Made by a program: the position numbers and the translations under genes
Notes under the pieces: model-generated
What the model saw: the letters and a program-made list of their open reading frames with translations, nothing else
The model's database searches: none
Told to the model about the DNA's origin: nothing
Shown here: positions 7,777 through 34,096 of the stretch, piece by piece
Layout of the letters: each line of letters opens with the position of its first letter
Numbering within the stretch: the first letter of the stretch is position 1
Assembly: GCA_026393755.1 (NCBI GenBank)
Contig: JAPKZO010000007.1
Span: forward strand, 1-64,000
Direction: 5' to 3'
Source of the DNA: Acidobacteriota bacterium
Lineage (GTDB): Bacteria > Acidobacteriota > Vicinamibacteria > Vicinamibacterales > JAKQTR01
DNA length: 64,000 bases

Positions 7777-7853
7777 GCGCCCGTAGCTCAGCTGGATAGA
7801 GCACCGGCCTTCTAAGCCGGGGGTCCCGCGTTCGAGTCGCGGCGGGCGCGCCA
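7777..7853 (+). tRNA. tRNA-Arg (TCT), CCA encoded
   Basis: A full cloverleaf: acceptor GCGCCCG paired with CGGGCGC, D arm GCTCAGCTGGATAGAGC, anticodon arm CCGGCCTTCTAAGCCGG with anticodon TCT, T arm CCGCGTTCGAGTCGCGG, discriminator G and an encoded CCA at 7851-7853. Related broken copies lie at 7051 and 15798, marking this gene as an insertion site for mobile DNA. Confidence 0.95.
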
Positions 7854-11118: not shown

Positions 11119-11345
11119 AAGTTCATCGCGACCCACTACCGGAGATTCGCCTGGCAGTAGGAGGGTCCGTTGCCGCTCGTAGCGGTCTCAGACGATTACG
11201 ATGAGCAGCCCACGAATCTTCATCGTCAATTGCGACTGACCCAAGGAGCGTTGGCGCAACGCATTGGCGCTGCCGGCGAGGCCGTCGTGTACCAGTGGGA
11301 GTCGAGAAGAAGAACGCCACCATCACAGGTTCTTTGGCAACGAGT
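11119..11345 (+). pseudogene. Decayed copy of the double-HTH gene, 3' part
   Basis: The translation LHRQLRLTQGALAQRIGA then AVVYQWESRRRTPPSQVLW closely matches the C-terminal HTH of the intact protein at 7997-8626, also at DNA level. Just upstream, FIATHYRRFAW aligns with FMERYYRQSYSRFA of the intact gene but is followed by an in-frame stop (TAG near 11158). The N-terminal HTH is missing. An open frame runs on to 11574 but its tail shows no similarity to anything recognised. Confidence 0.65.
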
Positions 11346-11689
11346 CCTGCTGCTACAACGCGGCGGTGCGCAACCAGGCCGCGATGTGCGCCGCCGACGC
11401 ATCGTCGCCCGGAGGAACGCAGAAGCACACCAGGGCCAAACCGTCGGATACCGCCGCACGTTGGCAAGTTGCACCATGACTCGAGTTCGTGAGCGCGAAT
11501 GTCTGGTGCGCAGCCATCGATCAACACTGCTGCGATTGTCGTTGGTCATCAACGGTTGTTGCCCCCGCAGTTAGTCGCCAGCGGGCAAATTGCGGCATCG
11601 TCGGCCGCTGCCGGCGTCAAACGCGAGACTTGTGCGAAAGCGACTTTGGCCGCTCGTCCCGAAACGAGCCGACTTGTAGACGTGGGACT
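11346..11689. other. Intergenic stretch, no supported gene
   Basis: This stretch follows the HTH relic and precedes the end of the HSP90-like gene. Short open frames are present on both strands but show no motif or start signal. Confidence 0.4.
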
Positions 11690-14002
11690 CTACGGAATCG
11701 TGTCGAAGCGAACGTAGAACTCCTTCGCGCCATCGGTGATTTGGAACGCCGGCTCAAGCACTTTCGGCACTGGAACGAAGACGCGGTCTCTTGTCACGAT
11801 GGTCGTTGTCGGAACCATCGTTCCGCCGGTGGTCTGCGCTTCCAGCGGCTCTTTCAACTTGATGTCGTAGTAGAGACTCAAATCGCCGGTCGCGCCCGTA
11901 AATACGTAAATCACGCGGTGGGAGCCCCACATCAGCTTGGTGCTGTGCGGTTCGCGCAGAAACTCGCCCTCGCTCTTTGCCAGCCGGTCGGAAAGCGCGA
12001 GAAACATTCGGAATCCGTTCAGCTTTGAGTGCTCGGCCGCGACCGTCAGAACCTTCATAGCACTCGTCATATTAGGTCGTAGAATGGGCGGTGCGGCCTC
12101 GTACTTGTTGACGGCTGGAGCCTCGCTGGGCAACCCAATGATGTCCGGCAGTTCCTCTTCGACGGTGCCGACTTGTTCCTTGCGCACCTCCTGGCGCTGT
12201 CCCGCGCCGCGTCCCCCGGACGATCTGAGGACTTGCTCGAGGTCCGTCTTCCCGGCGAGGTAGTCCGCAAGAAGCGATTCAATTGCCCCGAACTCGCTTT
12301 GTTCATACCGGAACAACTCCTCGTTCTCCTTGAGGCGGCGGTACAACGCGTCACGGCCCTGTCTTGTCGAAGACGGAACATGATCCCGAATGTCCGGGTA
12401 GAGCTGTTGCCGGACGAAGTCCACTACAAAACCATGAAAAACCTCGCGCGCCGTCTTGTACGATTCCACAACCATGCGCACCGCCGGGATGTCGCGGGCG
12501 ATAGAGATGTGCAGGACATCGCCCTTCTTCTCGATGTGAAAGGCTACGCCGTGGCTGATCGACGCGAGAGCCGCATCAATGTCCGGCATGAAATATTCAT
12601 CTAGCAACACGCCACGCAACTTCACCAAGAACATCGCTTCATCTAACGTGAGTTGACTGGAGGGAATGCGATCGACAATCGTCTGCTCCGGTACCTCCGG
12701 GATCATTGACAGTTCCTTGAGATAGCGAAGCTGGAGCTTGCGCCTCGGGTTCGTTTGACTCACGTGAAACAGGTTGGCCTGTTCACTCGCGAAACGTCGC
12801 AAGATGGTTGCGTCATTTCCGGAATAGAAGTGCTTCGCCTTGAATGGTTCATACTCTGCGACTTCGCCTAACAACACCTCTTTATCGCCGGCGGGCAGGA
12901 TGGCTAGCGCTACATTCTTCGCGAGCTGGATAAGTCCCTGCGAGAGGATGTATTGCTGAAATTGCTGGTTCTGATCTGCCGCCGAGGTTTCGGCGAGGTC
13001 CCTCGACGCTTCGGCCTCCATCAGCGAGACGAGATTTGCGACGTGTTGGATGCTCTCGCGGCTGAGGGCTTCGCGACCTGCCGTCGGGTGAAGAATGTTG
13101 AGATTGACGAAGCCGCCGAACTCGTAGGCGCCGGAGACGGGAATCGGAGCAAGCCCGAACAAGTTGCGAAAGCCCAAGGTCTGCCCGCCCTGCTGGACGA
13201 AGAGGACCTCTCCGGACAGCGGATTGCCACCTAGCGTGATTCCGTCGAGCCGCGCGAGCACCCGCGCCTGCGGGTTGACGAATGTCCGAAGCGTACCGAC
13301 GAACTCACCGCGGGAGACTGGCCTTGATGAGATCTCCGTGAAGCCGGCAGCCTTGTTTCCAAGAGCGTCCTGAAAATGGTCCTGGCTGATCAACTGGCCG
13401 TTAAGAAACACGGGAACCGGAAGGAACCGCACGTACTGCCTAAGATACTCGCGTGCCTCCGGTTCACCGACGGAAAAGGACGGATCCAGGTCCGCCTCGA
13501 CGATCGTTCCCGGCTCGCGGTTATCAGTCAGGCGGTCAAGGTCGATGCAATTCTGCGCGATGCGCAAGTCCGCCCGCTTTGCCGAACTGACCAGCGTGAC
13601 ATCGGAATCAATGTGGCGGGTTTCGACTCGTAGGGCGGTAGAAACCCCGAAGTTAGCCATCGCTCCAATGCCGAATGTCCCTATGACCCCTGACCGTTGT
13701 GCCAGATCGGATGTCTTCCCGCTTGAGCCTGCCTTCCAGAAGTTATTTCTGAGGATCTCGTCGGTCATGCCAATGCCGTCATCTCGGACAGTGAGCCGCG
13801 CCTTCTCGACGGTGACGTCGATTCTGCGTTCCGCAATGGACAGTTGCTGAGCGGTGCAGCGCATCAGGATCGCGTCATAAGCGTTCTGAACGTTCTCGCG
13901 CAGAAACGCCTTCGGCGAGTCGTAGATTTCCGAGGAGAGAATCTGGAGGATTCGATCCGTCTGTACATCAAACGCGATGAGTTCTCTGGCTTGCTGGTTC
14001 AT
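11690..14002 (-). CDS. HSP90-like GHKL ATPase
   Basis: A 770-residue protein with an N-terminal GHKL ATPase domain of the HtpG/HSP90 type. The Bergerat-fold motifs are clear: LRENVQNAYDAI (N box) near residue 37, VRDDGIGMTDE (G1 box) near 75, and GVIGTFGIGAMANFG (G2 region) near 105. Housekeeping HtpG is shorter and lacks this C-terminal part, and the sequence beyond the ATPase domain is divergent. It overlaps the upstream phosphoesterase gene by four bases (ATGA), so the two proteins are made together. I infer a chaperone-like switch controlling a phosphoesterase, plausibly a defence pair; no function is established by the sequence alone. Confidence 0.8.
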   Translation of the reverse strand: MNQQARELIAFDVQTDRILQILSSEIYDSPKAFLRENVQNAYDAILMRCTAQQLSIAERRIDVTVEKARLTVRDDGIGMTDEILRNNFWKAGSSGKTSDLAQRSGVIGTFGIGAMANFGVSTALRVETRHIDSDVTLVSSAKRADLRIAQNCIDLDRLTDNREPGTIVEADLDPSFSVGEPEAREYLRQYVRFLPVPVFLNGQLISQDHFQDALGNKAAGFTEISSRPVSRGEFVGTLRTFVNPQARVLARLDGITLGGNPLSGEVLFVQQGGQTLGFRNLFGLAPIPVSGAYEFGGFVNLNILHPTAGREALSRESIQHVANLVSLMEAEASRDLAETSAADQNQQFQQYILSQGLIQLAKNVALAILPAGDKEVLLGEVAEYEPFKAKHFYSGNDATILRRFASEQANLFHVSQTNPRRKLQLRYLKELSMIPEVPEQTIVDRIPSSQLTLDEAMFLVKLRGVLLDEYFMPDIDAALASISHGVAFHIEKKGDVLHISIARDIPAVRMVVESYKTAREVFHGFVVDFVRQQLYPDIRDHVPSSTRQGRDALYRRLKENEELFRYEQSEFGAIESLLADYLAGKTDLEQVLRSSGGRGAGQRQEVRKEQVGTVEEELPDIIGLPSEAPAVNKYEAAPPILRPNMTSAMKVLTVAAEHSKLNGFRMFLALSDRLAKSEGEFLREPHSTKLMWGSHRVIYVFTGATGDLSLYYDIKLKEPLEAQTTGGTMVPTTTIVTRDRVFVPVPKVLEPAFQITDGAKEFYVRFDTIP

Positions 14003-15447
14003 CTCGTCAGCCTCATCGAGTACTTCTGTCGCATCTCAATGACCGAGAGGTCAGTAGCCTCCACGACTAGTGGAAGCAATAACACCTCGCCCAGGCGGTC
14101 ACGGCGTCCCTCCGCCCATAATGCATCAATGACATGGATAGCCTCTGCCACACTTGTCGGAGGATCGAAGCTGGCGATCAATGCCGGCATGTCTTTCAGT
14201 CTCAAGAGGGAGTCGAGTAACAAGGGCCGCGCGAGGTCATCCAGCGCAGCCAGCGGGGCGAGAGCATCTGCGGCCTCACGGTAATCCCCGAGGTCGTATA
14301 ATCGCTGCGCATCGATCAGAGCCGCCGTGTTCTCGTTGCGGTGAACGGCCGGCGCGGGCGGCGGCTCGAACTTGAAGTCGCAATAGGTCTTGGTGTTCGG
14401 AGGGAGAGCGCGGCGACCCCAGATGGGCAGGCTAAGGTTGTCATTCTGCATCTCGCGGACGTGAAGCCGGCCTTCCCTAGTTTCAGTGTCAAGTTCGACG
14501 ATGTTATAGGAACGGCCGTGTCGGACAGACGCGCTGCCGCAGAGCGTGCCGGCACTGATCACCGTAATTGTTCGGTTCGTCCCGTGTCGGAACCGTGTCT
14601 CGAGGAACTGCGGCCGGTGCTGGTGGCCGTGAAAGCCAAGACTGAACCCGCGATCGATGAGGTTCTGTACCAAGTCCGGGTCCATGTAGTCGGAATGCGC
14701 CGGCAGCCCTTCGGCGTTGTGGTGCCAGACGGCGATGCGCAGCCGATTGTTTAACGAAGAATGCCGTAGCCTCATTCCCGCGTCCGCGATGCAGCTAGGG
14801 TGAATGGCGCCTTGCTTGTTAAACAGATCATTGTTGTGGCAGCTCGAGAAGCCAACCACGGTCACGTCGAGCCCAGGGAAATCGAATAAGTCGAGCTGTC
14901 GTTCAGGGGCGATGTCGTAGGTGCGCGCGCCGCCATAGAACGTCGCATAGAACTCTGCGAAGGCGCCAAGCCGCTGCTCGTACAACTGCTGATCGGCGAT
15001 CTCGTAAAGCTCGAACCCAGACCAGGACCAGCGCAACGGCGAGCCCGGCGAGAAGAGCTGCGTCACTAAGCCTTTCTTGCGATCTGGAAGGATGTCAACA
15101 CGCCGAAGGCTCTTCTCGAAGTGATAGGCGCTCACGTCGTGATTGCCGGGCACGACGATGACGCGGTTGCGGTCTCCTCCGACGAAACGATCGGTGAGCT
15201 GGCCCAGATAGTCCAGTGCCTCCTGGTACTGACTCCGGAGTGCCTTCTCCGGGTCACGCGCATCGGGAGTGATGCCTTGAATGATGTCCCCGCTGACGAT
15301 GACGAGGTCGGGGGGGCGCGCCATCGGTGTTTCTTCAACGGCGTATCGCCGGCGATCGTTCTCAAGAGATTCCAGAAGCACGTCGTTTCGGATCGGGTTG
15401 GCCGGATCGCGATGCAAATCGGAGATATGGAGCACGCTCAGCTTCAT
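13999..15447 (-). CDS. Calcineurin-like metallophosphoesterase
   Basis: A 482-residue protein with the full metal site of the metallophosphoesterase superfamily in the first 270 residues: LHISDLHRD, VIVSGDII, VIVPGNHDVS, AVWHHNAEG and LGFHGHQHRPQ. Enzymes with this site include the SbcD/Mre11 nucleases and cyclic nucleotide phosphodiesterases, so the substrate could be DNA, RNA or a nucleotide. The last about 120 residues contain repeat-like helices (LIDAQRLYDLGDYREAADAL), possibly TPR-like. It is the first gene of a two-gene operon with the HSP90-like ATPase. No signal peptide, so cytoplasmic. Confidence 0.85.
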   Translation of the reverse strand: MKLSVLHISDLHRDPANPIRNDVLLESLENDRRRYAVEETPMARPPDLVIVSGDIIQGITPDARDPEKALRSQYQEALDYLGQLTDRFVGGDRNRVIVVPGNHDVSAYHFEKSLRRVDILPDRKKGLVTQLFSPGSPLRWSWSGFELYEIADQQLYEQRLGAFAEFYATFYGGARTYDIAPERQLDLFDFPGLDVTVVGFSSCHNNDLFNKQGAIHPSCIADAGMRLRHSSLNNRLRIAVWHHNAEGLPAHSDYMDPDLVQNLIDRGFSLGFHGHQHRPQFLETRFRHGTNRTITVISAGTLCGSASVRHGRSYNIVELDTETREGRLHVREMQNDNLSLPIWGRRALPPNTKTYCDFKFEPPPAPAVHRNENTAALIDAQRLYDLGDYREAADALAPLAALDDLARPLLLDSLLRLKDMPALIASFDPPTSVAEAIHVIDALWAEGRRDRLGEVLLLPLVVEATDLSVIEMRQKYSMRLTR

Positions 15448-15797: not shown

Positions 15798-15883
15798 GCG
15801 CCCGTAGCTCAGTTGGATAGTCTGAAGGCGCCCCCGGAGCTTCTAAGCCGGGGGCCCCGCGTTCGAGTCCCGGCGGGGCGCCA
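15798..15883 (+). pseudogene. Broken tRNA-Arg copy
   Basis: The sequence starts GCGCCCGTAGCTCAGTTGG and ends with TTCTAAGCCGGGGG, the T loop GTTCGAGTC and GCGCCA, so both ends resemble the tRNA-Arg(TCT) at 7777. Between the D loop and the anticodon loop about nine extra bases (GTCTGAAGGCGCCC region) replace the D-stem 3' strand, the T stem has a mismatch, and the acceptor strands no longer pair properly. It cannot fold as a normal tRNA and probably marks an old integration junction. Confidence 0.75.
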
Positions 15884-18176: not shown

Positions 18177-18491
18177 GGGTCGGCCGTTTCCGGGGACGCG
18201 CTATCATTGCCTCCCTTGCAGTCTGATTCAAGGCTCATCAACCCTGGGCGGGCTCTCGGGGGGAGACATGTCCCGTCCATGAACGGGCGCGGCGCTGCCG
18301 CTCCCCGATCGTTCGCTGCCAATGGTTGGGGGCAGTCGCGATGATCAGGTCTCCGGTTTGTCTCGGTCGAGGCTCGACCTACTTCGAAACTGGAGACGCT
18401 GAAGCCTGAGCCTTCCCTTGATGTATCCTCATCCACGACTACGAACGCCCGGACCGGCCCACCCGCCGGCCGGGGCTAATTGGCTGCTACC
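18177..18491. other. Divergent intergenic region between the endonuclease and BREX operon
   Basis: The promoters of both the minus-strand endonuclease gene and the plus-strand pglW operon should be here. No gene, strong palindrome or certain promoter consensus was recognised. Confidence 0.4.
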
Positions 18492-21400
18492 ATGGCACTT
18501 TCCTCAACTCGCTGGCACGTCATCGCCGAATCCCGCACTCCGTGGGAGAAGGAGGCGCTCGACTACCTGCGCGAGCGGCTGCCCGATCGCGAGCCGGTTC
18601 GGGTTTGGTCGAACTTCGAGTTCATCGCGGACGACGGCAGCATCAACGAGGTCGACGCGCTCGTACTGACGGCTACAGGGTTCTATCTCGTCGAAATCAA
18701 GAGCCGACCTGGCGTCATCGAAGGGGACGCCCATACCTGGTCCTGGCACGACAGCGGCCGCATCGTCACGGCCGACAATCCGCTCCTGCTTGCCAACCTC
18801 AAGGCCAAGCGGCTCAAGAGCTTGCTGCGTCGCCAGCGGGCCTTTCAGCGTGGGCACGTGCCGTTTCTCGATCCTCTGATCTTCTGCTCGGCTCCGGACC
18901 AACGGCTCAGGCTTCAAGGGGCGGCTGCGTTGCGGGTGCACCTGCGCGACGAGTCGTCGGACCACTCCAGGGCCGGACAGCCGGGAATCGTCGGCGCCTT
19001 GACGGCCGACCGTGTGGCGGCCAACGACCGGGGGCAGTCGCCGGCGCGCATCGACTTACAGGTGGCTCGCGCCGTCACGCAGGCGATGGAGCAGGCGGGC
19101 ATCCGTCCTGCGAATCGTACGCGCCGGGTTGGCGACTACCTACTGGAGACGCTGCTTGCCGAGGGCCCTGCCTGGCAGGATTGGGCGGCCACTCACGTGT
19201 CGCTCGCCAACCTGAAGCGCCGCGTCCGACTGTATCGCGTTCCGCTTGGGGCGCCGGCCGAACTGCGGCAGACGATCCGGCGCGCCGCCGAGCGCGAGTT
19301 TCAGATCCTCCAAGGGATCAACCACCCAGGCATTCTCAAGGCCCTTGACTTCCGGGAAGACGAGCGCGGTCCGGCGCTTGTCTTCGACCACGACCCCTCG
19401 GCCAGGCGCCTCGACCTCTACATCCGCGAGCAGGGCGCCACGCTCTCAGTTGCCGACCGTCTTCGCCTACTTCGCGAAATCGCCGAGATTGTCCGGGCCG
19501 CCCACGAGAAGCGTCTCGTGCATCGCGCGCTGAGTCCGCAGACAGTCCTTGTTTCGGCGCTGCCGAACACACTGCTGCCAAGCCGCGTCCAGATATTCGG
19601 CTGGCAGACCGGTGGTCGCGATGGCAGCACCACCGAGGGCGGTGCCGTGAGCGCCACGGCGCATCCCGATGCCCTCGTGGAAGACGCAACCACAGTGTTC
19701 ATGGCGCCGGAGGCCCACCTCGGCGTCGACACTGGCGAACATCTCGACGTCTTTTCCCTCGGCGCACTGGCCTGGTTCCTCTTCACAGGTCAGCCGCCCG
19801 CCGACTCGCTCCTCAGCCTCACCGAACGTCTTCGCGAGGGGCACGGCCTGCGGCTCTCATCAGCCATCAACGGCGCCGGCCGCCAGCTCGAGGAACTGGT
19901 TCAGTTCGCCACCGCACCATCGGTCGCGAGCCGCCTCGACTCGGTAGCCGATTTCCTGGAGTACCTGGACCTCGCTGAGCGCGAGTTACTGCCCGAGCAG
20001 ATCGAGCGGACCATTGAGCCCACCGAAGCACGTGCAGGTGACGAGTTACCGGGCGGCTACAAGGTCGTCCGCCGTCTGGGCAAGGGCTCCACGGCAGTGG
20101 CCCTGCTGGTGTTGCAGGAGAACCGGGAGCTGGTGCTGAAGGTGGCGTTGACGCCGGAACAGAACGACCGGCTTCAAGCAGAAGGCGATGTCCTCCGCCA
20201 GCTTCGCCATCAGCACATCGTCGAACTCCATGGCGAGTTGGAGATTGCCGGCCGGAAGGCGCTCGTCCTCGACCGAGCGGGCGACAAGACGCTAGCGGAG
20301 CGGCTCCGCGCCGAAGGCCGACTGCACGTGGAGCTGTTATTGCGCCTCGGTGAGGATCTGCTGCAGACGGTGGACTGGCTAGAGGCCAAGGGGATCCCAC
20401 ATCGCGATATCAAGCCCGACAACCTCGGCGTCAGCCCAATTGGCGAAGGCGACCGTCTCGAGCTGGTGCTCTTCGACTTTTCGCTCTCGCGCACACCGGC
20501 CGATCAGATTCGGGCGGGCACCCCGCCCTATCTGGAGCCGTTTCTGTCGCTGCGCCGCCCCGCGCGGTGGGATTTCCACGCGGAGCGTTTTGCGACCTCG
20601 ATCACGCTGTATGAGATGGCGGCCGGGACATTGCCCCGCTGGGGCGACGGTCAAAGCGATCCCGCCCTGATAGACGATGAGGTGACCATCGACGGGGAGC
20701 TGTTCGACGCCACGCTGCGCGAACCGCTCACCGAGTTCTTCCGACAGGCGCTGCGGCGACACCCGGACGAGCGCTTTCACACCGCCGAGGAGATGCTGCG
20801 CGCCTGGCGCCGTGTCTTCCAGATCGCCGAGAAGCCGGTGGACACCGGTGCTGGTGCCGAAGACAACAGCGCGAGACTTCAGGCGCTGCTTGCCGCGGCT
20901 ACGCTCGATACCACCATCGCGGCTCTTGGCCTGGGGACGCGGGCGCTGAACGCCCTCGATCGGCTGAACGTCATCACAGTCAGTGATCTGCTCTCGACGC
21001 CGACGACCAGCGTCTGGGGGATGCGGGGCGTCGGGCACAAAACGCGGCGCGAGATTGGCGAGCTGGTGAAGCGGCTCCAGGAGCGTTTCCCGCAAGCGGT
21101 GGTCGTGCCGCGCGCGGCCGTGCCGGACGCCGGCGAGGCAGTTGCTTCTGGACCGGCGGCGCACAGCCTGGATCTGATCGTTCCACACCTCGTGCCTCAC
21201 AGAGCCGGAGCGAAAGGCGCAGAGGAGCGAGTGCTGCGGCTGCTGCTAGGCCTCGAGCCACCGCACGCCCCCTACGAAAGTGGTGGCGCATGGCCGACAC
21301 AGACGGACGTTGCACGCGAGATAGGCATGTCGCGCGCGCGTGTCAGCCAGCTTGTGGCCCGGGCTCGCTCACGGTGGCTCAAGGATCCATCCGTCACAGC

Positions 21401-22694
21401 GCTGAGAACGACGATAGCCGCGGAACTGGAGCGTAACGGATCTGTCCTCACCGCCGGCGAGGTGGCCGAGATGCTCCTGCTCCGCCGCGGCTCGGTGCAA
21501 GTGGATCCTACGCGAAGCCTGCACGCGCTTGCGGCTGGGCGGGCGGCAGTGGAGGCAGAGCAGGCGCTCGGTGAGCCGCGTTACGTGGTGCGGCGCAACG
21601 GGTCGGTTATTTTCTGCGCGGCGGACGACGCGTGGGCGAACTACGCAGACCGCCTTGGCCAGATGGTCGACCGCCTCCTTGCCTCCGATGTCGTAGTCGC
21701 GCCGCAGCGGGCAATGGAGGTTCTTGGCGCCTATGACCCACCGGAGGGCGAGAAGCCGCCGACTTCAGCCCGGCTGATGACGCTGGCGGCGGCCGCTTCT
21801 CTCACGGGCGCCGTTTCCGCAAACCGGTTGGAGCTGTATCGCAAGGGGCTCGACGCCGCCCGCGCCCTCAAGCTCGCGTCCAGTGCACTTGTTGGCGTGG
21901 ACCAATTATCGGTGGAGGCGATCGGCGAGCGTGTGCGGAGCCGCTACCCGGAGGCGCAGCCCCTACCCGATCGGCCCGCGCTCGACGCGCTCCTCGAGGA
22001 AGCGGGCCTGCCATTGCGATGGGCACCAGAGGCAGCGGGCGGACGGGGTGCGTATTGCGGCACGCGCGGCCGATCCGGCACGTCGGTGCCAACGTCCACG
22101 TTCACACCTGCGACCGCCCCACGTCGCGGCGAGGGGCCGGTGTCGGCCGAAGAGGCCGAGGCCAAGGCGTTCGACGAACGTTTGCGCTACCTCTCCAGGC
22201 ATGGCGGTTTTGTCGCCCTCGCCGTTGCTGCGCGCTATGCGCGTCCGGCCGTCGAGCGACTCGTCAGCGAGTATGGCGTGGAGCGAGTGAGCGTAGACGA
22301 CCGGCTGATTGTCGCGATGCGGGAAGAGGCCGCGGAGGCAGGCGCAGAATGGTGCACGGTGATCGCGACCGACGCGGCAGGGCCTGGAAGTCCCGACTGG
22401 CCGCTTCTCGTCACGCTGGTGAAGGGGGCGGTGGAGCGGCTCGAACGGAGCTTTGCTCGGCCGGACGGCACGCTGCTCATCGAGCATGCCGGTCTGCTCG
22501 CGCGCTACGGCCAGCTTGGGCTGCTCGAGCGGCTGCGCGATCGCGCGGGCCGGCGCGACTCGGGACTGCACGGGGCGTGGGTGCTCGTTCCTTCCGGCCA
22601 GATGCCAGCCGTGGCTGGTCAGACTATTCCGGTGATCACGCCCGGGCAGTGGGCAGCAGTGCCAGACCTCTGGGCGCGCCAGAAGGCGTCGTAG
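18492..22694 (+). CDS. pglW: BREX type 2 serine/threonine kinase PglW
   Basis: A 1400-residue multidomain protein, first gene of the BREX operon. Residues 10-130 form a NERD nuclease-related domain with NEVDALVLTATGFYLVEIKS. Residues about 230-500 form a kinase-like domain whose catalytic loop reads LVHRALSPQTVLV, lacking the HRD aspartate, so probably a pseudokinase. Residues about 515-790 form a canonical kinase: GKGSTAVA glycine loop, HRDIKPDNLGV, LFDFSLSR. A helix-hairpin-helix domain like the RNA polymerase alpha C-terminus (RGVGHKTRREIGELVKRL) and a sigma region 4-like HTH (TDVAREIGMSRARVSQL) follow. In Pgl systems PglW phosphorylates other components or phage-derived signals. ATG at 18492 is preferred to a TTG at 18480. 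Confidence 0.9.
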   Translation: MALSSTRWHVIAESRTPWEKEALDYLRERLPDREPVRVWSNFEFIADDGSINEVDALVLTATGFYLVEIKSRPGVIEGDAHTWSWHDSGRIVTADNPLLLANLKAKRLKSLLRRQRAFQRGHVPFLDPLIFCSAPDQRLRLQGAAALRVHLRDESSDHSRAGQPGIVGALTADRVAANDRGQSPARIDLQVARAVTQAMEQAGIRPANRTRRVGDYLLETLLAEGPAWQDWAATHVSLANLKRRVRLYRVPLGAPAELRQTIRRAAEREFQILQGINHPGILKALDFREDERGPALVFDHDPSARRLDLYIREQGATLSVADRLRLLREIAEIVRAAHEKRLVHRALSPQTVLVSALPNTLLPSRVQIFGWQTGGRDGSTTEGGAVSATAHPDALVEDATTVFMAPEAHLGVDTGEHLDVFSLGALAWFLFTGQPPADSLLSLTERLREGHGLRLSSAINGAGRQLEELVQFATAPSVASRLDSVADFLEYLDLAERELLPEQIERTIEPTEARAGDELPGGYKVVRRLGKGSTAVALLVLQENRELVLKVALTPEQNDRLQAEGDVLRQLRHQHIVELHGELEIAGRKALVLDRAGDKTLAERLRAEGRLHVELLLRLGEDLLQTVDWLEAKGIPHRDIKPDNLGVSPIGEGDRLELVLFDFSLSRTPADQIRAGTPPYLEPFLSLRRPARWDFHAERFATSITLYEMAAGTLPRWGDGQSDPALIDDEVTIDGELFDATLREPLTEFFRQALRRHPDERFHTAEEMLRAWRRVFQIAEKPVDTGAGAEDNSARLQALLAAATLDTTIAALGLGTRALNALDRLNVITVSDLLSTPTTSVWGMRGVGHKTRREIGELVKRLQERFPQAVVVPRAAVPDAGEAVASGPAAHSLDLIVPHLVPHRAGAKGAEERVLRLLLGLEPPHAPYESGGAWPTQTDVAREIGMSRARVSQLVARARSRWLKDPSVTALRTTIAAELERNGSVLTAGEVAEMLLLRRGSVQVDPTRSLHALAAGRAAVEAEQALGEPRYVVRRNGSVIFCAADDAWANYADRLGQMVDRLLASDVVVAPQRAMEVLGAYDPPEGEKPPTSARLMTLAAAASLTGAVSANRLELYRKGLDAARALKLASSALVGVDQLSVEAIGERVRSRYPEAQPLPDRPALDALLEEAGLPLRWAPEAAGGRGAYCGTRGRSGTSVPTSTFTPATAPRRGEGPVSAEEAEAKAFDERLRYLSRHGGFVALAVAARYARPAVERLVSEYGVERVSVDDRLIVAMREEAAEAGAEWCTVIATDAAGPGSPDWPLLVTLVKGAVERLERSFARPDGTLLIEHAGLLARYGQLGLLERLRDRAGRRDSGLHGAWVLVPSGQMPAVAGQTIPVITPGQWAAVPDLWARQKAS

Positions 22695-22702
22695 GGACCT
22701 CA

Positions 22703-25700
22703 ATGATCGACCGAAAGGGCCTTCTCTCCGATCTTACGAAGCTCCTCCGCCACCTCCAGGATGACATCCGGCGTCGGTGTGACGACCAGTCGGACGTCGA
22801 TCGTTCAGCGCGTGCCGAATGGACCTTTACGCGCGAGGCGGGCCGGACGGCAGACGACTACACGGTCTGGCGCGACGGATGGATCACGCAGGCGGCCGCT
22901 GCGTGGATTCTCGGAACCGTGTTCGTGCGGTTTATGGAGGACAACGATCTGATCTCGCCGCCGCTCATCTCAGGGCCCGGCGAGCATCTTGCGGTTGCCC
23001 GCGATTGCCGCACGTACTACTTCAATGAGCGGCCGGCCGACTCGGACCGCGAGTACCTACTGCACGTTTTCACGACCGTCTCGAAGCTCCCGGCCGCGGC
23101 CGACATCTTCGACAGTCGCCACAATCCCATCTGGAAACTCGGGCCGACAGGTGATGGGGCGACCCAGCTGTTGGAATTCTGGCAGCGAATTGACCCGGCA
23201 AGCGGAACCCTCGCGCACGATTTTACGGACCCTGCCCTTGACACGAGGTTTCTCGGTGATTTGTACCAGGACCTATCAGAGGATGCGCGCAAGAAGTATG
23301 CGCTCCTCCAGACGCCGGAGTTCGTCGAGGAGTTCATCCTGGACCGCACGCTGACTCCCGCCATCGAGGAGTTCGGCTATCGCGAGGTACGCTTGATCGA
23401 TCCCGCGTGTGGTTCAGGGCACTTCCTGCTCGGGGCGTTCCGGCGGCTCCTCGATCTCAGCCAGCGACACGAGCCAGCGGTGAACGTACGCGAGCTGGCT
23501 CGCAGGGTTCTGGCGAACGTGTGCGGTGTGGATGTCAACCCGTTTGCGGTCGCCATTGCGCGATTCCGGCTGCTGGTTGCGGCGCTTCGCGCGTGCGGGA
23601 TTGCACGTCTGGATCAGGCGCCGGCGTTCCCGCTCAACGTCTACACTGGCGATTCACTGCTCCATGGGAAACGGTTCTCGGGCGAGGGCGAACTCCAGAT
23701 GTCGTTGCACGAGGAAGACCCGGTCCGGCGTGCGCTAGCGACCGAAGACGCCGAAGCGCTGAATCGTGTGCTCGGGCAGCAGTACCATGCGGTCGTTGGG
23801 AACCCGCCATACATCACCGTCAAGGACAAGGCGCTCAACGAGGCGTACCGCAACCGCTATCACTCCTGCTACAGGCAGTACTCGCTTGCAGTCCCGTTCA
23901 TGGAGCGGATTTTCGAACTCGCGCTGCCCGGTGAACGAGCGGGCTTCGTGGGAATGGTGACCGCCAACTCGTTCATGAAGCGGGCATTCGGCAAGGAACT
24001 TATCGAGAAGTACATGCCCCGCTGGGACGTCAGTCACGTCATCGACACATCGGGGGCGTACATCCCTGGCCACGGCACCCCAACCGTCATCCTGTTCGGG
24101 CGGAACCGCCAGCCGGACGCGTCGACGATTCGCGCTGTACTGGGTATACGTGGCGAGGCACAAGCGCCGGACGATGCCGCCAAGGGCAGTGTGTGGTCGG
24201 CGATACTTGCACAGCTTGATCTGGCCGGGTCCGAGAGTCATTTCGTCAGCGTCGCGGACGTGCAGCGGGAACGGTTCCACGTTCATCCGTGGACCCTGGG
24301 AGGTGGTGGGGCAGCGGATCTCAAAGAGCTTCTTGACAGTGGCTCAGCTCGGCGACTTTCTGAGGTTGTCCACTCGATTGGATTTGCCAGTTTTCCCGGC
24401 GCGGATGAGGTGTTTGTTGCGGATCTGTCCGCACTGCGACGGGCGCGGGTCACGACGTCCTATATCAAGGAGTTCGTTACAGGAGAGTCTGTCCGCGATT
24501 GGTGCATTGCAACGAGCCAGGCGGCATTCGTTCCATATGACGAATCTCTTTCTCCGATAGCCCTGGACCTCAATGCCCCGTGGGCGAGGCGCACTTGGCT
24601 CTTCCGGACGGTCGTCAACGGGACACTGTCGTTCGGCGGAAGAACGCGCGCTGACCAAGGTGACGATTGGTGGACGTGGTATCGGTGGGTGGCTGAGAAG
24701 TACCGCACGCCACTTTCGATCTCTTTCGCCGAGGTGGCCAGTCACAATCACTTCGTGCTCGACCGCGGCGGAAAGGCATTCAAGCAGACGGCGCCAGTCA
24801 TCAAACTGCCGGCGGGGGCCACAGAGGACGATCACCTAGCGTTGCTCGGCCTATTGAACAGTTCGACTGGGTGCTTCTGGATGAAGCAAGCTCTGCATGA
24901 CAAGGGGGGGGGCGGTATTGGCGGTGGGCTCGCCACCGAGAAATGGGAGCACTTCTTCGTTCACAACGCCGGTGGTCTTTCAGGCTTTCCTCTGCCTCCG
25001 GGTCAGCCGCTGAGTCTGGCGTCGGCGCTTGACTGGAAGGCTGTCGAGTTAGGGTCCCTGCGGCTGTCTCTGGGAGATGTTGAACGCTGGGAATCTAAGG
25101 ATGCGTTGGCGGCTAGGCGCCGTGGCTATGGGGAACTGTTGACCAAGATGCAGATGCTGCAGGAGGAGCTCGACTGGGAAGTCTACGGGTTGTACGGCCT
25201 GCTCACTGGTGACTACTGCTATCACCCCCAAGACATGCCGGGGATCCGTGTTGGAGAACGCGCGTTCGAGATTGTGATGGCGCGCAAGATGGTTGCGGGC
25301 GAACTCGAGACGACGTGGTTCGAGAGGCATGGATCGACGCCAATCACCGACTTCCCATCGGACTGGCCAGAGGCATATAGAAAGGTAGTTGAGCGCCGAA
25401 TTGCCCTCATCGAAGCCGACAAATGGATTGGTCTCATTGAGCAGCCTGAATACAAACGGCGATGGAACACTGAATCCTGGGATGTGCAGCAGGAACGTGC
25501 TCTTCGCTCGTGGCTTCTCGGCCGCCTAGAGTCGTCCGCGTACTGGCCATCGGTGGAGCTGACCACTTGTGGCCAGCTGGCCGAACGAGCGAAGCGCGAC
25601 GCTGAGTTCATGGAGGTGGCTGAGGCCTACCGAGGTCATGCGGACTTCGATGTGTTGAAGCTCGTGACTGAGTTGGTGATGGACGAGGCCGTGCCATATT

Positions 25701-26260
25701 CTCCGGGACAATGCTACAAGGAGTCTGGCCAACGCAAACGGGACGTGTGGGAGCGCACCTGGGAAGCGCAGCGGCGAGAAGATGCAATCGACGCGCGCAT
25801 TGACTTGCCTGAAGGCCACGAGCATCGTCTGACTGCAGAGCGGGCGAAGGTGCTCAAGGCAAGTGAAATTGGAGACATCCAGGTTCCGCCAAAGTACATC
25901 TCCGCGGACTTCAAGTCAGGCCCTTTCTGGCGCCTTCGCGGGAAGCTCGATGTCCCGAAAGAACGATTCATCAGCTACCCGGGCGCGAGTCGCGAGACGG
26001 ATCCGTCCCCCGTCGTTGCGTGGGCGGGGTGGGACCATTTGAGGCGGGCCCAGGCGTTGTCCGCATACTATGTGTTCGTCAAAGAGCAGGACGGTTGGAG
26101 TGCCGAACGCCTGCAGCGGCTCTTGGCGGGGTTGCGCGAGCTTCTGCCGTGGGTGAAGCAGTGGCACAACGATGTGGACCCCGAGACGGGGTTGCGACTA
26201 GGCGACTACTTCGCTGACTTCGTGGATGCCGAAGAGCGGGCGCTGGCCGGGCGCGGGTAG
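22703..26260 (+). CDS. pglX: BREX DNA adenine methyltransferase PglX
   Basis: A 1185-residue N6-adenine methyltransferase, the modification enzyme that marks self DNA in BREX. The AdoMet-binding motif LIDPACGSGHFLLG lies near residue 233 and the catalytic VVGNPPYITVKD near residue 367. A long C-terminal part (from about residue 650) acts as target recognition in such enzymes. The frame is open back to 22019, but the upstream portion is the antiphase of pglW; the ATG at 22703, eight bases after the pglW stop and preceded by TAGGGA, is clearly the start. Length agrees with type 2 PglX. Confidence 0.93.
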   Translation: MIDRKGLLSDLTKLLRHLQDDIRRRCDDQSDVDRSARAEWTFTREAGRTADDYTVWRDGWITQAAAAWILGTVFVRFMEDNDLISPPLISGPGEHLAVARDCRTYYFNERPADSDREYLLHVFTTVSKLPAAADIFDSRHNPIWKLGPTGDGATQLLEFWQRIDPASGTLAHDFTDPALDTRFLGDLYQDLSEDARKKYALLQTPEFVEEFILDRTLTPAIEEFGYREVRLIDPACGSGHFLLGAFRRLLDLSQRHEPAVNVRELARRVLANVCGVDVNPFAVAIARFRLLVAALRACGIARLDQAPAFPLNVYTGDSLLHGKRFSGEGELQMSLHEEDPVRRALATEDAEALNRVLGQQYHAVVGNPPYITVKDKALNEAYRNRYHSCYRQYSLAVPFMERIFELALPGERAGFVGMVTANSFMKRAFGKELIEKYMPRWDVSHVIDTSGAYIPGHGTPTVILFGRNRQPDASTIRAVLGIRGEAQAPDDAAKGSVWSAILAQLDLAGSESHFVSVADVQRERFHVHPWTLGGGGAADLKELLDSGSARRLSEVVHSIGFASFPGADEVFVADLSALRRARVTTSYIKEFVTGESVRDWCIATSQAAFVPYDESLSPIALDLNAPWARRTWLFRTVVNGTLSFGGRTRADQGDDWWTWYRWVAEKYRTPLSISFAEVASHNHFVLDRGGKAFKQTAPVIKLPAGATEDDHLALLGLLNSSTGCFWMKQALHDKGGGGIGGGLATEKWEHFFVHNAGGLSGFPLPPGQPLSLASALDWKAVELGSLRLSLGDVERWESKDALAARRRGYGELLTKMQMLQEELDWEVYGLYGLLTGDYCYHPQDMPGIRVGERAFEIVMARKMVAGELETTWFERHGSTPITDFPSDWPEAYRKVVERRIALIEADKWIGLIEQPEYKRRWNTESWDVQQERALRSWLLGRLESSAYWPSVELTTCGQLAERAKRDAEFMEVAEAYRGHADFDVLKLVTELVMDEAVPYSPGQCYKESGQRKRDVWERTWEAQRREDAIDARIDLPEGHEHRLTAERAKVLKASEIGDIQVPPKYISADFKSGPFWRLRGKLDVPKERFISYPGASRETDPSPVVAWAGWDHLRRAQALSAYYVFVKEQDGWSAERLQRLLAGLRELLPWVKQWHNDVDPETGLRLGDYFADFVDAEERALAGRG

Positions 26261-26271
26261 CGCACAGCGCG

Positions 26272-29200
26272 GTGGTGATTGCAAGAGAGCAGGCCGTGAC
26301 AACGTACATCAAAGACCTCATCGACATCCCCGAACATGTCCACGCGGGCGATTTCGTCCTCAAGCTCGCGGAGGGCGTGGAACGCGCCGACGATACGCTG
26401 CGCCAGTACGTCGTCACGCCCCAGCTTGCAGACTGCTTCGACCAGGCCCTCGCGCTCGTGCGCGGGGCGCTGACCGACGGCACGAGCAAGGGCGCCTACT
26501 TGCACGGGAGCTTTGGTAGCGGCAAGAGCCACTTCATGGCCGTGCTCCTGCTCCTGCTCCGCAACCACCCGGGGGCCAGGGGTGTTTCAGAACTGGCCGG
26601 TGTCGTGGCGAAGCATGGAGAGTGGGTGGCGGGAAAACGTTTCCTCCTCGTCCCGTACCACATGATCGGCGCCGAGTCGATGGAGGCCGCCATCCTCGGG
26701 CACTACGCGGCACACGTGCGCCAGCTCCACCCGGACGCGCCCGTTCCTGCCGTCTTCCAGTCGGAGTACCTGTTTGCCGATGCCCAGCGTCTGCGCGCCA
26801 AGATGGGCGATGACCGCTTCTTCGCGGAACTCAATGTGGCGGCCGGGTCGCCGCGAACCGGGTGGGGCACGCTGAAGGGAACATGGAACCGCGCGCGTTT
26901 CGATGTCGCGATCGTCGCGCCGGCAGGCGATGGCGAGCGGACGAAGCTCGTGTCGGCCCTCGTGCAGACGTACTTCGAGTCCTACGGCGAGGTAGCACAA
27001 GCGAACGACGCAGGCTTCGTCCCGCTCGAGGACGGCCTGTCGGTGATGTCGGCCCATGCGAAGGCGCTCGGCTACGACGCCGTGATTCTCTTCCTCGACG
27101 AGTTGATTCTCTGGCTCGCCAGCCGCGCGACCGACGCCGCCTTTGTGACCCGCGAGGGGCAGAAGCTGGTGAAGCTGGTCGAATACCAGAACACCAACCG
27201 CCCAATCCCGCTCGTGAGCTTCGTCGCCCGACAGCGCGACCTGAAGGATCTGGTCGGCGAGTTCGTCACGGGCGCTGACCAACTCCGCTTCGCCGACATC
27301 CTTAACTACTGGGAGGCTCGTTTCTCCACAATCCGCCTCGAGGATCGCAACCTGCCTGCCATTGCCTCGAAGCGCCTCCTTGCTCCCCGCACACCCGAGG
27401 GGAAGACGCTCATCGACGCCGCCTTCGATCAGACGACGAGGGTGCGGCAAGAGGTGATGGACATCCTCTTGGCCGGCGATGGCGACCGTGCCATGTTCCG
27501 CCAGGTGTATCCGTTCAGCCCCGCGCTCGTGCAGGCGCTGATTGCCGTCTCCTCGGCGCTCCAGCGCGAGCGGACGGCGCTCAAGATCATGCTCCTCCTG
27601 CTCGTCGAGCAGCGCGACCGCCTCACGCTCAACGACATCGTCCCGGTGGGCGACTTGTTCGACGTCATCGCCGAAGGCGACGAGCCGTTCACCGACGTGA
27701 TGCGGAAGCGCTTTGGCGACGCGAAGAAGTTGTACTTCCAGAAGCTGCTGCCGCTGCTCGAACGTGACCACGAAGTGATGTTGGACGAGGTGCGTCGGGG
27801 AACGGCGGATGCTCAGAAGACCCGAGCATTCCGCACCGACGACCGTTTGATAAAGACGTTGTTGCTTGCCGCGCTCGTACCGGAAGTGGCCGCGTTCAAG
27901 GCGATTACCGCAGCCCGGCTCGCGGCCCTCAACCACGGCACCATCAAGTCGCCCGTTCCTGGTGGCGAGGGGGGCATCGTCCTGGCGAAGTGCAGGCGAT
28001 GGGCGGCGGAGGTGGGCGAGCTCCGCGTCGGTGACGAGGATCCGAATCCGACCATCTCGCTACAGCTCACGGGAATCGACATCGAGAGCGTCATGGCGCG
28101 CGCCCGTGTGGAAGACAATACCGGCAGCCGACGCCGCAAGATCAAAGAGCTACTGTTCCAGCACTTCGGGGTATCGAACGAGGGCGAGCTATTCGAGCGG
28201 CACGAGTTCACCTGGCGTGGCACCCGGCGGCTTTGTGAGCTGACGTTCGGAAACGTGCGGGAGATGACCTATGAGGCCATGGCCGGCAGCGACGACTGCT
28301 GGCGCGTGGTCATCGACTATCCGTTTGACGAAGCGCCGCATACGCCGCTCGATGACCTGAGCAAGGTCGAGGACCTGCGCGCCAACGAGGACCCTGCCAG
28401 GACCATCGTGTGGGTGCCTGATTTCCTGAGCCCGGCCGCGCAGAAGGATCTGGCAACGCTCGTAATGCTGGACGAGATCCTCAAAGAGACGCGGTTTGAC
28501 GATTTCGTGTCGTACCTGCCGCCGGTCGATCGGCAGCCGGCGCGCATGATACTCGAGAGCCAGCGCAGCCAGCTCCGCCAGCGCGTCACGCAGTACATGG
28601 AGGCCGCGTACGGCTTGAGAACGCCAGAGGCCGGCTGGCTCGACACCCGGTCCGAGTTGCCGCTGCACTTGTGTTCGCTCGACGGTGCCTTCGAGCCCAG
28701 GATGCCAGCGGCCGGAACGCTGCGCCAGGCGTTCGAGCACCTGCTCGACCAGGCGCTTGCGCACCAGTTCCCTGGCCACCCGGAGTTTGGCACCAGACTA
28801 TCGAGGACCAACCTCAAGAAGGTGTTCGACGAGGTAGTGCGGGCGGTTGGCGCATCTGAAAACCGTCTTGCCGTCGAGCAGGGCCTGCGCCAGGACATGC
28901 GGCAAATCGCCGTCCCGCTGCGGCTGGGAGAGATGGGTGAGACGCACTTCGTGCGCGGCGAGCACTGGAAGACGCACTTCCTTAGGAAGCATGCGCAGGA
29001 GGGTGTCCAGGCGATGACCGTCGCGCGGCTTCGTGCCTGGACCGACGATCCGCAGGCGCTCGGCCTGCCTCGGGACGTGCAGAATCTCGTCATCCTGGTC
29101 TTTGCCGCCCAGACGGATCGCGCGTTTTTCCGTTCCGGCAGCGCGTTCAGCCCGTCGCTCGACTCGCTGCCAGACGATGTGGAGTTGAAGACGGAGGTGT

Positions 29201-29994
29201 TGCCGGAGAGCGGCGAGTGGAACGTGGCCGTGAGGCGGGCGGCTGCCATCTTCGGTGTGACCATGGCGCCGCTCTTGAGTGGGCAAAACGTGGCGAAGCT
29301 GGCGGGCGACGTGCGCGAGGTGGCGCGCGAGCGGCGCGACGGGTGCCGTCAACTGGTAGCGGGCCTGCAACGGGCCAGCGAGCCAGAGCGCCTGGGTGTG
29401 GACTTGCGAGGCGCGAGCAGGAGCCGGAACGCAGCTGTCGGACTAGCGCTCGTGGAGCAGGTGCTCGCGGCGGAAGGGCGCGGTCTGGTGGCCGCGCTTG
29501 CGAAGGCTCAGGTGCCGACCAGCGAGCACGCGTTGGGGATCAGCCTGAAGAAGGCGAGCGACCTGGCGGCCGTGCTCGAGGCAGCGGAGTGGGGGATTCT
29601 CCACGCGGCGTGCGAGTTGCCCGACGCGCGCGCGACAGAGGGACGGGCGATCAAGGCCATGCTTGCGCTCGCCTTCGAAGCAGACGAACTGGCGACCGCG
29701 CTCGGGTCCGCGTTGAAGACGGCGCAGGCGGAGGCGGTAACGCTGATCCGGCGCGTGCCGTCACCGCTACCCGTCGTGGTCGCTCCCGGTGGTTTTGGGC
29801 CTGGATCTGTCGTTGTCGATCCGGCACCGCCAGCTGGCACGTCGAGGCGCGTTGTGGATGAGGGACGCGTCACTGACGTAATGCCCGCGGAAGCAAGTGC
29901 GGAGTTCGACAAGATCAGAGACGCGATGAAGCAGTCTCGTGAGTGCAGGCTGACGCTGTCGTGGCGTGTAGACCGCGTGGAGGATCGGCGGTGA
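26272..29994 (+). CDS. pglY: BREX type 2 ATPase PglY
   Basis: A 1240-residue P-loop ATPase, the type 2 counterpart of BrxC. Walker A LHGSFGSGKSHFM lies near residue 77 and Walker B AVILFLDELILWL near 270. The start is a GTG at 26272, twelve bases after pglX; a second GTG at 26296 is possible. The rest is mostly helical without recognisable catalytic motifs. It is thought to form an oligomeric ATP-driven motor in the complex. It ends in a GTGA overlap with pglZ, so translation is coupled. Confidence 0.9.
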   Translation: MVIAREQAVTTYIKDLIDIPEHVHAGDFVLKLAEGVERADDTLRQYVVTPQLADCFDQALALVRGALTDGTSKGAYLHGSFGSGKSHFMAVLLLLLRNHPGARGVSELAGVVAKHGEWVAGKRFLLVPYHMIGAESMEAAILGHYAAHVRQLHPDAPVPAVFQSEYLFADAQRLRAKMGDDRFFAELNVAAGSPRTGWGTLKGTWNRARFDVAIVAPAGDGERTKLVSALVQTYFESYGEVAQANDAGFVPLEDGLSVMSAHAKALGYDAVILFLDELILWLASRATDAAFVTREGQKLVKLVEYQNTNRPIPLVSFVARQRDLKDLVGEFVTGADQLRFADILNYWEARFSTIRLEDRNLPAIASKRLLAPRTPEGKTLIDAAFDQTTRVRQEVMDILLAGDGDRAMFRQVYPFSPALVQALIAVSSALQRERTALKIMLLLLVEQRDRLTLNDIVPVGDLFDVIAEGDEPFTDVMRKRFGDAKKLYFQKLLPLLERDHEVMLDEVRRGTADAQKTRAFRTDDRLIKTLLLAALVPEVAAFKAITAARLAALNHGTIKSPVPGGEGGIVLAKCRRWAAEVGELRVGDEDPNPTISLQLTGIDIESVMARARVEDNTGSRRRKIKELLFQHFGVSNEGELFERHEFTWRGTRRLCELTFGNVREMTYEAMAGSDDCWRVVIDYPFDEAPHTPLDDLSKVEDLRANEDPARTIVWVPDFLSPAAQKDLATLVMLDEILKETRFDDFVSYLPPVDRQPARMILESQRSQLRQRVTQYMEAAYGLRTPEAGWLDTRSELPLHLCSLDGAFEPRMPAAGTLRQAFEHLLDQALAHQFPGHPEFGTRLSRTNLKKVFDEVVRAVGASENRLAVEQGLRQDMRQIAVPLRLGEMGETHFVRGEHWKTHFLRKHAQEGVQAMTVARLRAWTDDPQALGLPRDVQNLVILVFAAQTDRAFFRSGSAFSPSLDSLPDDVELKTEVLPESGEWNVAVRRAAAIFGVTMAPLLSGQNVAKLAGDVREVARERRDGCRQLVAGLQRASEPERLGVDLRGASRSRNAAVGLALVEQVLAAEGRGLVAALAKAQVPTSEHALGISLKKASDLAAVLEAAEWGILHAACELPDARATEGRAIKAMLALAFEADELATALGSALKTAQAEAVTLIRRVPSPLPVVVAPGGFGPGSVVVDPAPPAGTSRRVVDEGRVTDVMPAEASAEFDKIRDAMKQSRECRLTLSWRVDRVEDRR

Positions 29995-32777: not shown

Positions 32778-34096
32778 TGAGCCTGAGTGCGCAACGTCGA
32801 CATGACCTACTCGACGCGCTTCGACGCGGGACCGTGCCCCAGTCGAGTCTGGACGTACTTGCCGTAGGTCTCGAGCCGTTCGAAACGGCGCTGCAGGCGG
32901 AACTCGACACGGCGGCACGGGGCGGCGCCGTGTTCAAGGCGGTGCGCGGGGAGTACGGAAGCGGCAAGACGTTCTTGGCCAGATGGCTCCAGGAGACTGG
33001 GCGGCGGCGTGGGTTCGCGAGTGCCGAGGTGCAGATCTCGGAGACCGAGACGCCCCTGCACCGGGTGGAAACGGTGTACCGGCGCCTGATGGAGCGGCTG
33101 TCCACGGCTGCTGTGTCGTCAGGCGCGCTTCGGTCGGTGGTGGATGGCTGGTTCTTTGCGCTCGAGCAGGACGTGCTGGCCGAGGGTGTCATTGCCGAGG
33201 CCGACGGCGCAGGCTTGCTCGCTCGCACCAACGAACTGATGGAACAGCGACTGGCCGGCATCACTCGGACTGCACCCGGGATCGCCGCAGCACTGCGAGC
33301 CTACCGTGCAGCCATTGCGGCGGGGGAGCGGGCCGTGGCGGACGGTCTGGTCGCCTGGATATCCGGGCAACCGAACGTCGGCGCCGCGATCAAGCGCAGC
33401 GCAGGCATCAAGGGAGACATCGACCATTTCGGCGCGCTGAGCGCCCTGCAGGCCCTCCTCGTCATGCTGCGCGACTCTGGTCACGCCGGCCTCGTGGCGG
33501 TGCTCGACGAGGTCGAGACGCTACAGCGGATGCGTGGCGATGTACGCGATCGTAGTCTCAACGCCCTGCGGCAACTCGCAGATGAGGTGGATGCTGGCCG
33601 ATTCCCAGGTCTCTACTTGTTGATTACCGGTACGCCGGCCTTCTTCGACGGCCCACAAGGGATCTCGCGCCTGACACCTCTCGCGCAACGGCTGCACGTC
33701 GACTTCGCGACCGATGCTCGATTCGACAATCCGCGGGCGGTGCAGATTCGACTACAGGCCTTCACGCACGACCGGTTGATGGAACTAGGGCGAAAGGTCA
33801 GGGACATCTTTGCCGATGGCGGCTCGCACAACGAGCGGATACGGGCCGTTGTGGACGACGCCTATCTTCACGACCTGGCCAACACCGTGACCGGTTCGCT
33901 CGGAGGCAAGGTCGGCATCGTGCCGCGCATCTTTCTCAAGAAGCTCGTCGTTGACATTCTCGACCGTGTCGACCAGTTTCCCGACTTCGACCCGCGGCGC
34001 CACTACGCCCTGACGATTGGTTCCCAGGAACTCACGCCCGCGGAACGGTCTGCGCGGGGTGCTTCGTCGCCCGACGAAGTTGAAATCGATCTGTGA
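32774..34096 (+). CDS. brxD: BREX ATP-binding protein BrxD
   Basis: A 440-residue AAA-type ATPase. Walker A GEYGSGKTFLARW lies near residue 57 and Walker B LVAVLDEVETLQRM near 240. It begins with GTG-ATG overlapping the pglZ stop. BrxD is specific to type 2 BREX operons and occurs together with BrxHI, as here. Precise biochemical role not known. Confidence 0.9.
   Translation: MMSLSAQRRHDLLDALRRGTVPQSSLDVLAVGLEPFETALQAELDTAARGGAVFKAVRGEYGSGKTFLARWLQETGRRRGFASAEVQISETETPLHRVETVYRRLMERLSTAAVSSGALRSVVDGWFFALEQDVLAEGVIAEADGAGLLARTNELMEQRLAGITRTAPGIAAALRAYRAAIAAGERAVADGLVAWISGQPNVGAAIKRSAGIKGDIDHFGALSALQALLVMLRDSGHAGLVAVLDEVETLQRMRGDVRDRSLNALRQLADEVDAGRFPGLYLLITGTPAFFDGPQGISRLTPLAQRLHVDFATDARFDNPRAVQIRLQAFTHDRLMELGRKVRDIFADGGSHNERIRAVVDDAYLHDLANTVTGSLGGKVGIVPRIFLKKLVVDILDRVDQFPDFDPRRHYALTIGSQELTPAERSARGASSPDEVEIDL

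What the first reader, a model, noticed from the sequence alone, without database searches (positions are those of the whole stretch)
11690..15447. HSP90-like ATPase and metallophosphoesterase operon, candidate uncharacterised defence system
A 770-residue HSP90-type GHKL ATPase distinct from housekeeping HtpG is translationally coupled (ATGA) to a 482-residue metallophosphoesterase with all metal-binding motifs and a TPR-like tail. The pair is bounded by mobile-element scars next to a defence island. Such a chaperone-like sensor coupled to a phosphoesterase could sense infection and release nuclease or nucleotide-hydrolase activity. I do not know an established system with exactly this composition.
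Basis: partly seen in the sequence, partly recalled or inferred. Interest (0 to 1): 0.8.

Follow-up and report, generated by a model that had tools for sequence, protein, structure and literature searches.

The report
HSP90-like ATPase plus phosphoesterase defence operon
A two-gene unit that travels between distant bacteria, an HSP90-like switch protein tied to a metal-dependent phosphoesterase, sits again and again among virus-defence genes and looks like an uncatalogued antiviral system; its action has not been tested.

Summary
ORFs 11690-14002(-) and 13999-15447(-) encode a 770-aa HSP90-type GHKL ATPase and a 482-aa metallophosphoesterase (MPP), overlapping by ATGA. The pair is an evolutionary unit: all 13 full-length homologues found (at least three phyla, plasmids, chromosomes, two IMG/VR contigs; down to 26% identity) have the MPP gene directly upstream, catalytic residues are invariant in the 12 intact pairs, and the two proteins' distances correlate at r=0.96. 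It is rare and patchy, and here lies on a 63-kb element bounded by an exact 51-bp tRNA-Arg repeat, with BREX type 2, a type II-A retron and Gabija. Elsewhere it adjoins Lamassu (twice) and Septu, and is embedded inside an Hma operon. No PADLOC or NCBIfam model describes it. The MPP is a distant relative of the experimentally validated anti-phage MPPs DS-8 and DS-9. Best reading: an ATP-driven HSP90-like sensor/clamp that gates an MPP effector, perhaps docked through the MPP's TPR-like tail, in parallel to eukaryotic Hsp90-PP5. Defence is inferred from association, not shown; substrate and trigger are unknown. New variant of a known kind.

The parts
11690..14002 (-). HSP90-like GHKL ATPase, 770 aa: N-terminal ATPase (about 12-200), Hsp90-type middle domain (to about 420), further region to about 565, and a beta-rich C-terminal domain (about 600-770)
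13999..15447 (-). Calcineurin-like metallophosphoesterase, 482 aa: catalytic domain 1-365, TPR-like helical tail 372-481
13999..14002 (-). ATGA stop/start overlap coupling the two genes; ATGA or a similar junction is kept in homologues
7777..7853 (+). Intact tRNA-Arg(TCT); its 3' half (7806-7856) is repeated exactly (51 bp) at contig position 70794-70844, marking the ends of a 63-kb integrated element that contains the operon
15798..15882 (+). Degenerate tRNA-Arg copy 350 bp upstream of the MPP gene, likely scar of an older or nested insertion
18480..36201 (+). BREX type 2 system (PglW, PglX, BrxC/PglY, PglZ, BrxD, BrxHI): defence-island context, not part of the pair

Best explanation
A mobile two-gene anti-phage (or anti-element) system. 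The HSP90-like protein is an ATP-driven dimeric clamp that acts as sensor and switch. The MPP is the effector, held to the clamp by its C-terminal TPR-like tail. On infection the clamp changes its nucleotide state and releases or activates the MPP, which hydrolyses a phosphodiester substrate (most likely a nucleotide or nucleic acid), stopping phage growth or the infected cell. Shown: gene pair, coupling, co-inheritance, intact catalytic motifs, folds, mobility, defence-island association. Inferred from relatives: immune role of this MPP branch. Inferred only: complex formation, tail docking, trigger, substrate, outcome. My probability is about 0.8 for a defence role, about 0.55 for 'HSP90-like protein gates the MPP', and about 0.35 for nucleotide hydrolysis rather than nucleic acid cleavage as the main activity.
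For: All 13 full-length homologues have the MPP gene directly upstream on the same strand; Mantel r=0.96, p=2e-4. Catalytic residues of both proteins invariant in 12 pairs. Rare and patchy; on conjugative plasmids and, here, in a tRNA-flanked element. Known defence systems nearby in 5 of 11 scanned loci: window BREX type 2, retron II-A, Gabija; L013 and L005 Lamassu LmuA/LmuB; L015 Septu; L018 pair inside Hma; L012 adds the PADLOC candidate PDC-S01. Control: 0 of 52 proteins at 13 HtpG-type loci match PADLOC at 1e-40; 5/10 loci (window left out, PDC-S01 counted) vs 0/13, Fisher p=0.0075. MPP hits NCBIfam DS9_1_antiphage 1.3e-15 and DS8 2.2e-7; the L018 MPP hits DS8 at 2e-37; DS-8 and DS-9 MPP catalytic mutants lose defence (PMC13092281). 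MPP relatives without HSP90 lie in large WD40 (one with Roc GTPase) proteins or beside a CAP12-type TIR protein. Models: HSP90-like to Hsp90/TRAP1 Z about 25, MPP to Rv0805/GpdQ/SMPDL3A Z about 22.
Against: No phage assay exists. Several loci (L009, L016, L017) show no known defence gene nearby; L016 and L017 flanks include housekeeping genes. The control is small and taxonomically unmatched. Both NCBIfam DS hits are far below curated cut-offs. The tail's TPR nature rests on a model and weak matches. The HSP90-like protein ends ...VRFDTIP, without the MEEVD motif by which eukaryotic Hsp90 binds TPR proteins (sequence).
Confidence: 0.6

Rival explanations
1. The MPP is an Mre11/SbcD-like nuclease and the GHKL protein its DNA clamp, so the pair directly restricts foreign DNA, like MutL- or Shedu-type GHKL-nuclease systems.
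For: GNHD motif and fold shared with Mre11 (Z about 18); weak sbcd model hit; the GHKL ATPase of VcSduA is proposed to control a nuclease in a validated defence system (PMC12137116).
Against: The closest folds are phosphodiesterases (Rv0805, GpdQ, SMPDL3A, Z about 22), not Mre11; the ATPase is closest to Hsp90 rather than MutL or gyrase.
Confidence: 0.25
2. Toxin-antitoxin or addiction pair: the MPP is a toxin kept inactive by the HSP90-like protein, stabilising the mobile element; defence would be a side effect.
For: Two coupled genes, carried on conjugative plasmids and an integrated element.
Against: Both proteins are much larger than typical toxin-antitoxin partners; no toxicity data; repeated placement next to chromosomal defence systems and inside an Hma operon.
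Confidence: 0.15
3. Chaperone-type stress pair: the HSP90-like protein matures or protects the MPP and clients, giving stress tolerance rather than defence, and merely hitch-hikes on islands.
For: The ATPase has an Hsp90 N and middle fold; other HSP90-like ATPases pair with TPR or unknown proteins in non-defence surroundings (L006, L007, L096). The genome has no recognisable HtpG, so it could fill that role here.
Against: Absent from all near relatives, which live without it; recurrent defence neighbours and embedding inside the Hma operon; constant single MPP partner; MPP branch related to validated anti-phage MPPs.
Confidence: 0.12

Closest known systems
DS-8 (DefensePredictor; single protein MPP + NACHT)
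   Same: Related MPP domain; an NTPase module linked to an MPP; MPP and NTPase residues both essential there (PMC13092281).
   Different: NACHT STAND NTPase fused in one protein; here a separate HSP90-like GHKL ATPase in a second gene.
DS-9 (MPP + HAD phosphatase, two genes)
   Same: Two-gene unit; its MPP model is the best NCBIfam match to the window MPP (1.3e-15, below the cut-off).
   Different: The partner is a HAD phosphatase, not an ATPase; the match covers only about 195-481 of the 486-position model.
VcSduA, Shedu type I-D (GHKL ATPase + PD-(D/E)xK nuclease)
   Same: GHKL ATPase proposed to control an effector in phage defence (PMC12137116).
   Different: Fused nuclease of another fold; no MPP, GHKL not described as Hsp90-type.
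Eukaryotic Hsp90-PP5 (TPR metallophosphatase docked on Hsp90)
   Same: Hsp90-type ATPase with a TPR-bearing metallophosphoesterase-fold partner; PP5 appears among weak Foldseek matches.
   Different: Different phosphatase family, TPR at the other end, no MEEVD; probably analogous rather than homologous.
B. subtilis YydB-YydD
   Same: YydB is the best structural match of the MPP (Z 28.1, rmsd 3.4, 301 residues aligned); also modelled as a complex with a partner protein.
   Different: From my own knowledge YydD is a DUF2326 protein, not an HSP90; function unknown.
Tiamat (TmtA)
   Same: Best PADLOC hit of the ATPase, N-terminal ATPase domain only (3.8e-7).
   Different: Single protein of about 1300-1650 aa; no MPP.

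Membership tests
HSP90/HtpG chaperone | N-terminal GHKL ATPase with Hsp90-type middle domain | tested here: met
   Profile to PDB Hsp90s 2e-22 over the N domain; model Z about 25 to TRAP1/HSP90 through the middle domain
HSP90/HtpG chaperone | Passes the HtpG/HSP90 equivalog cut-off | tested here: not met
   83.5 of 455 and 67.2 of 371 bits
DS-8 | MPP fused to NACHT in one protein | tested here: not met
   No NACHT in either protein; 29 of 790 bits
DS-9 | DS9_1 equivalog MPP with HAD phosphatase partner | tested here: not met
   57 of 420 bits; the partner is a HATPase, no HAD domain
Tiamat | Full-length TmtA, about 1300-1655 aa | tested here: not met
   Only residues 17-121 match
Shedu type I-D | DUF4263 PD-(D/E)xK nuclease domain fused to GHKL | tested here: not met
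   No such domain in the Pfam scan
Calcineurin-like metallophosphoesterase | DxH, GD, GNHD/E, H, GHxH metal ligands | tested here: met
Anti-phage defence system | Genomic signature: recurrent location in defence islands or mobile elements, patchy distribution | tested here: met
Anti-phage defence system | Confers phage protection when expressed | not testable with these tools
   Needs plaque assays
Hsp90-PP5-like docking | TPR tail binding the HSP90-like protein | not tested
   Tail helices modelled, weak TPR matches; complex not predicted

The most novel reading that the evidence does not exclude
An unnamed bacterial immune system, spread across phyla, in which an HSP90-family ATPase is itself the infection sensor and directly licenses a TPR-tethered phosphoesterase effector: a prokaryotic counterpart of the Hsp90-TPR-phosphatase principle.
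Probability: 0.4. Interest if true: 0.82.

Novelty: new variant of a known kind. Interest (0 to 1): 0.64.

Why it matters
Sensor ATPases of bacterial immunity are mostly STAND/NACHT, AAA+ or SMC-like (own knowledge). An HSP90-type clamp in that seat, with a phosphoesterase effector already implicated in defence, would extend the modular scheme (swap the ATPase, keep the MPP) and tie the HSP90 fold directly to immunity. The unit is compact, two genes, and testable in laboratory strains; the Oceanibaculum and Rhizobium versions and the copy on plasmid pPUV-9 are natural starting points.

Tried and rejected
Housekeeping operon: rejected, absent in 59 relatives. HtpG duplicate: rejected, the genome has no other HtpG-like gene. 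Phage origin: no full-length hit in 50,697 phage records; the two IMG/VR contigs carrying the pair were not shown to be phages (one has a resolvase/recombinase and an RtcR gene; the RtcR hit was not counted as defence). E. coli: no DNA match in the complete-genome set. Literature: no paper found that describes the pair. Sigma-70 promoter and terminator scan uninformative. The annotation of Rhizobium sp. 007 splits its MPP gene into hypothetical ORFs; the frame is intact. The Methylobacter copy (L014) has its MPP in two frames, left as found.

Full report
Observation. The downstream gene encodes a GHKL ATPase (HATPase_c_3, 6.5e-9) and the upstream one a calcineurin-like metallophosphoesterase (2.5e-12). 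The ATPase matches HSP90-family models over its first 200 residues (PRK14083, 1.1e-23) but far below their cut-offs. The genome has no other HtpG-like gene.

The pair is a unit. Every one has the MPP gene directly upstream and in the same direction; a scan of IMG/VR with the MPP alone found the same two contigs. Junctions are ATGA overlaps in most, TGATG in pPUV-9, and a short gap in Poribacteria. Pairwise distances of the two proteins correlate at r=0.96 (Mantel p=2e-4), with no stop in 12 pairs and all chosen catalytic positions invariant except a second middle-domain arginine in two. Methylobacter L014 has a broken MPP frame, possibly an assembly error.

Distribution. None of the 59 nearest genomes carries it; in 396 genomes drawn from the phylum (own included) two have it. 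The 65-67% identity to alphaproteobacterial copies as well as to one genome of the same phylum, plus plasmid copies, points to horizontal transfer. In the window the operon lies in a 63-kb segment bounded by an intact tRNA-Arg(TCT) and an exact 51-bp repeat of its 3' half at contig position 70794-70844, with a degenerate tRNA-Arg copy 350 bp upstream of the MPP gene.

Defence context. The same element holds a BREX type 2 system, a type II-A retron, Gabija and the PADLOC candidate PDC-M36A. Elsewhere the pair is next to Lamassu (Oceanibaculum and P. aeruginosa, on different sides of the pair), Septu (Rhizobium), the candidate PDC-S01, and in Poribacteria between HmaA and HmaB-HmaC of an Hma system, about 10 nt before HmaB. 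A control of 52 proteins around 13 HtpG-type loci gave no PADLOC match at 1e-40; 5 of 10 versus 0 of 13 loci, Fisher p=0.0075, window left out. The control is small and not matched by taxon, and the scans covered the larger proteins of each locus only. L009, L016 and L017 showed no known defence gene.

The MPP branch. Its best curated matches are the anti-phage MPPs DS9_1 and DS8, below cut-off; the Poribacteria copy is closer to DS8 (2e-37). In the DefensePredictor study catalytic mutants of the DS-8 and DS-9 MPPs lost defence (PMC13092281). Two more distant relatives are parts of WD40 proteins of about 1450-1500 aa (one with a clear Ras/Roc GTPase), and a third stands beside a CAP12/Pycsar-type TIR protein. 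Calcineurin-like domains are listed among effector domains of STAND and TRADD-N conflict systems (PMC8195603). So the MPP is a module used with several switch proteins.

Structure. The MPP model (pLDDT 84) resembles YydB (Z 28) and the phosphodiesterases Rv0805, GpdQ and SMPDL3A (Z about 22), ahead of Mre11 (Z about 18). Its tail is an eight-helix bundle with weak TPR matches, among them a TPR domain solved with an HSP90 peptide. The ATPase model (pLDDT 79, pTM 0.51) matches the N and middle domains of TRAP1 and HSP90 (Z about 25); its beta-rich C-terminal domain (about 600-770) was not separately tested. Another HSP90-like family in the survey has a TPR-annotated neighbour gene, which makes tail docking plausible but is not evidence for this pair.

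Mechanism and rivals. I favour an HSP90-like sensor clamp that gates the MPP. A directly acting GHKL-nuclease pair, an addiction module and a stress chaperone pair are the rivals. What is shown stops at genes, folds, motifs, co-inheritance and neighbourhood.

Novelty. No PADLOC (2023) or NCBIfam (June 2026) model covers either protein as a system component at its cut-off, and no paper found in the library describes the pair. Because 'NTPase switch plus MPP' and 'GHKL switch plus effector' are both known separately, I class it as a new variant of a known kind.

Noticed in passing
window 7777-64000 (contig to 70844): 63-kb tRNA-Arg-bounded element carrying BREX type 2 (18480-36201), retron II-A (RT 36566-37519, NDT 37529-38575), a PD-T4-1/REase-like gene (38796-40961) and Gabija (GajA 42335-44392, GajB 44358-46124).
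   Followed up: partly
window 16746-18176 (-): 476-aa protein matching PADLOC candidate PDC-M36A (8.3e-43) with a weak Mrr_cat hit, between the pair and BREX.
   Followed up: no
window 9708-11079 (+): Two overlapping ORFs in different frames (378 and 172 aa); the first has no Pfam or PADLOC match. May be one gene broken by a frameshift.
   Followed up: no
window 11170-11574: Short HTH-like (Xre-like by eye) remnant just downstream of the operon; possible decayed regulator.
   Followed up: no
L110 2351-4827: MPP of the same branch directly followed by a protein with a CAP12/Pycsar-effector TIR domain: another possible MPP-based defence pair.
   Followed up: partly
L097 5400-9731; L109 2007-6503: Giant WD40 proteins holding an MPP of this branch (L097 also a Ras/Roc GTPase).
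   Followed up: partly
L008 6241-9563: Agrobacterium plasmid operon: PIN-like protein followed by an HSP90-like ATP-binding protein (about 545 aa); possible sister design with a nuclease effector.
   Followed up: no
L006 7881-12122; L007 7947-12170; L096 7962-12109; L111 3297-6280: Another recurring HSP90-like ATPase (about 620 aa) next to a TPR or unknown protein.
   Followed up: no
G000 genome: No recognisable HtpG in a genome rated 100% complete.
   Followed up: partly
L004 10547-12019: Rhizobium sp. 007 plasmid: MPP gene is intact but annotated as several hypothetical ORFs.
   Followed up: yes
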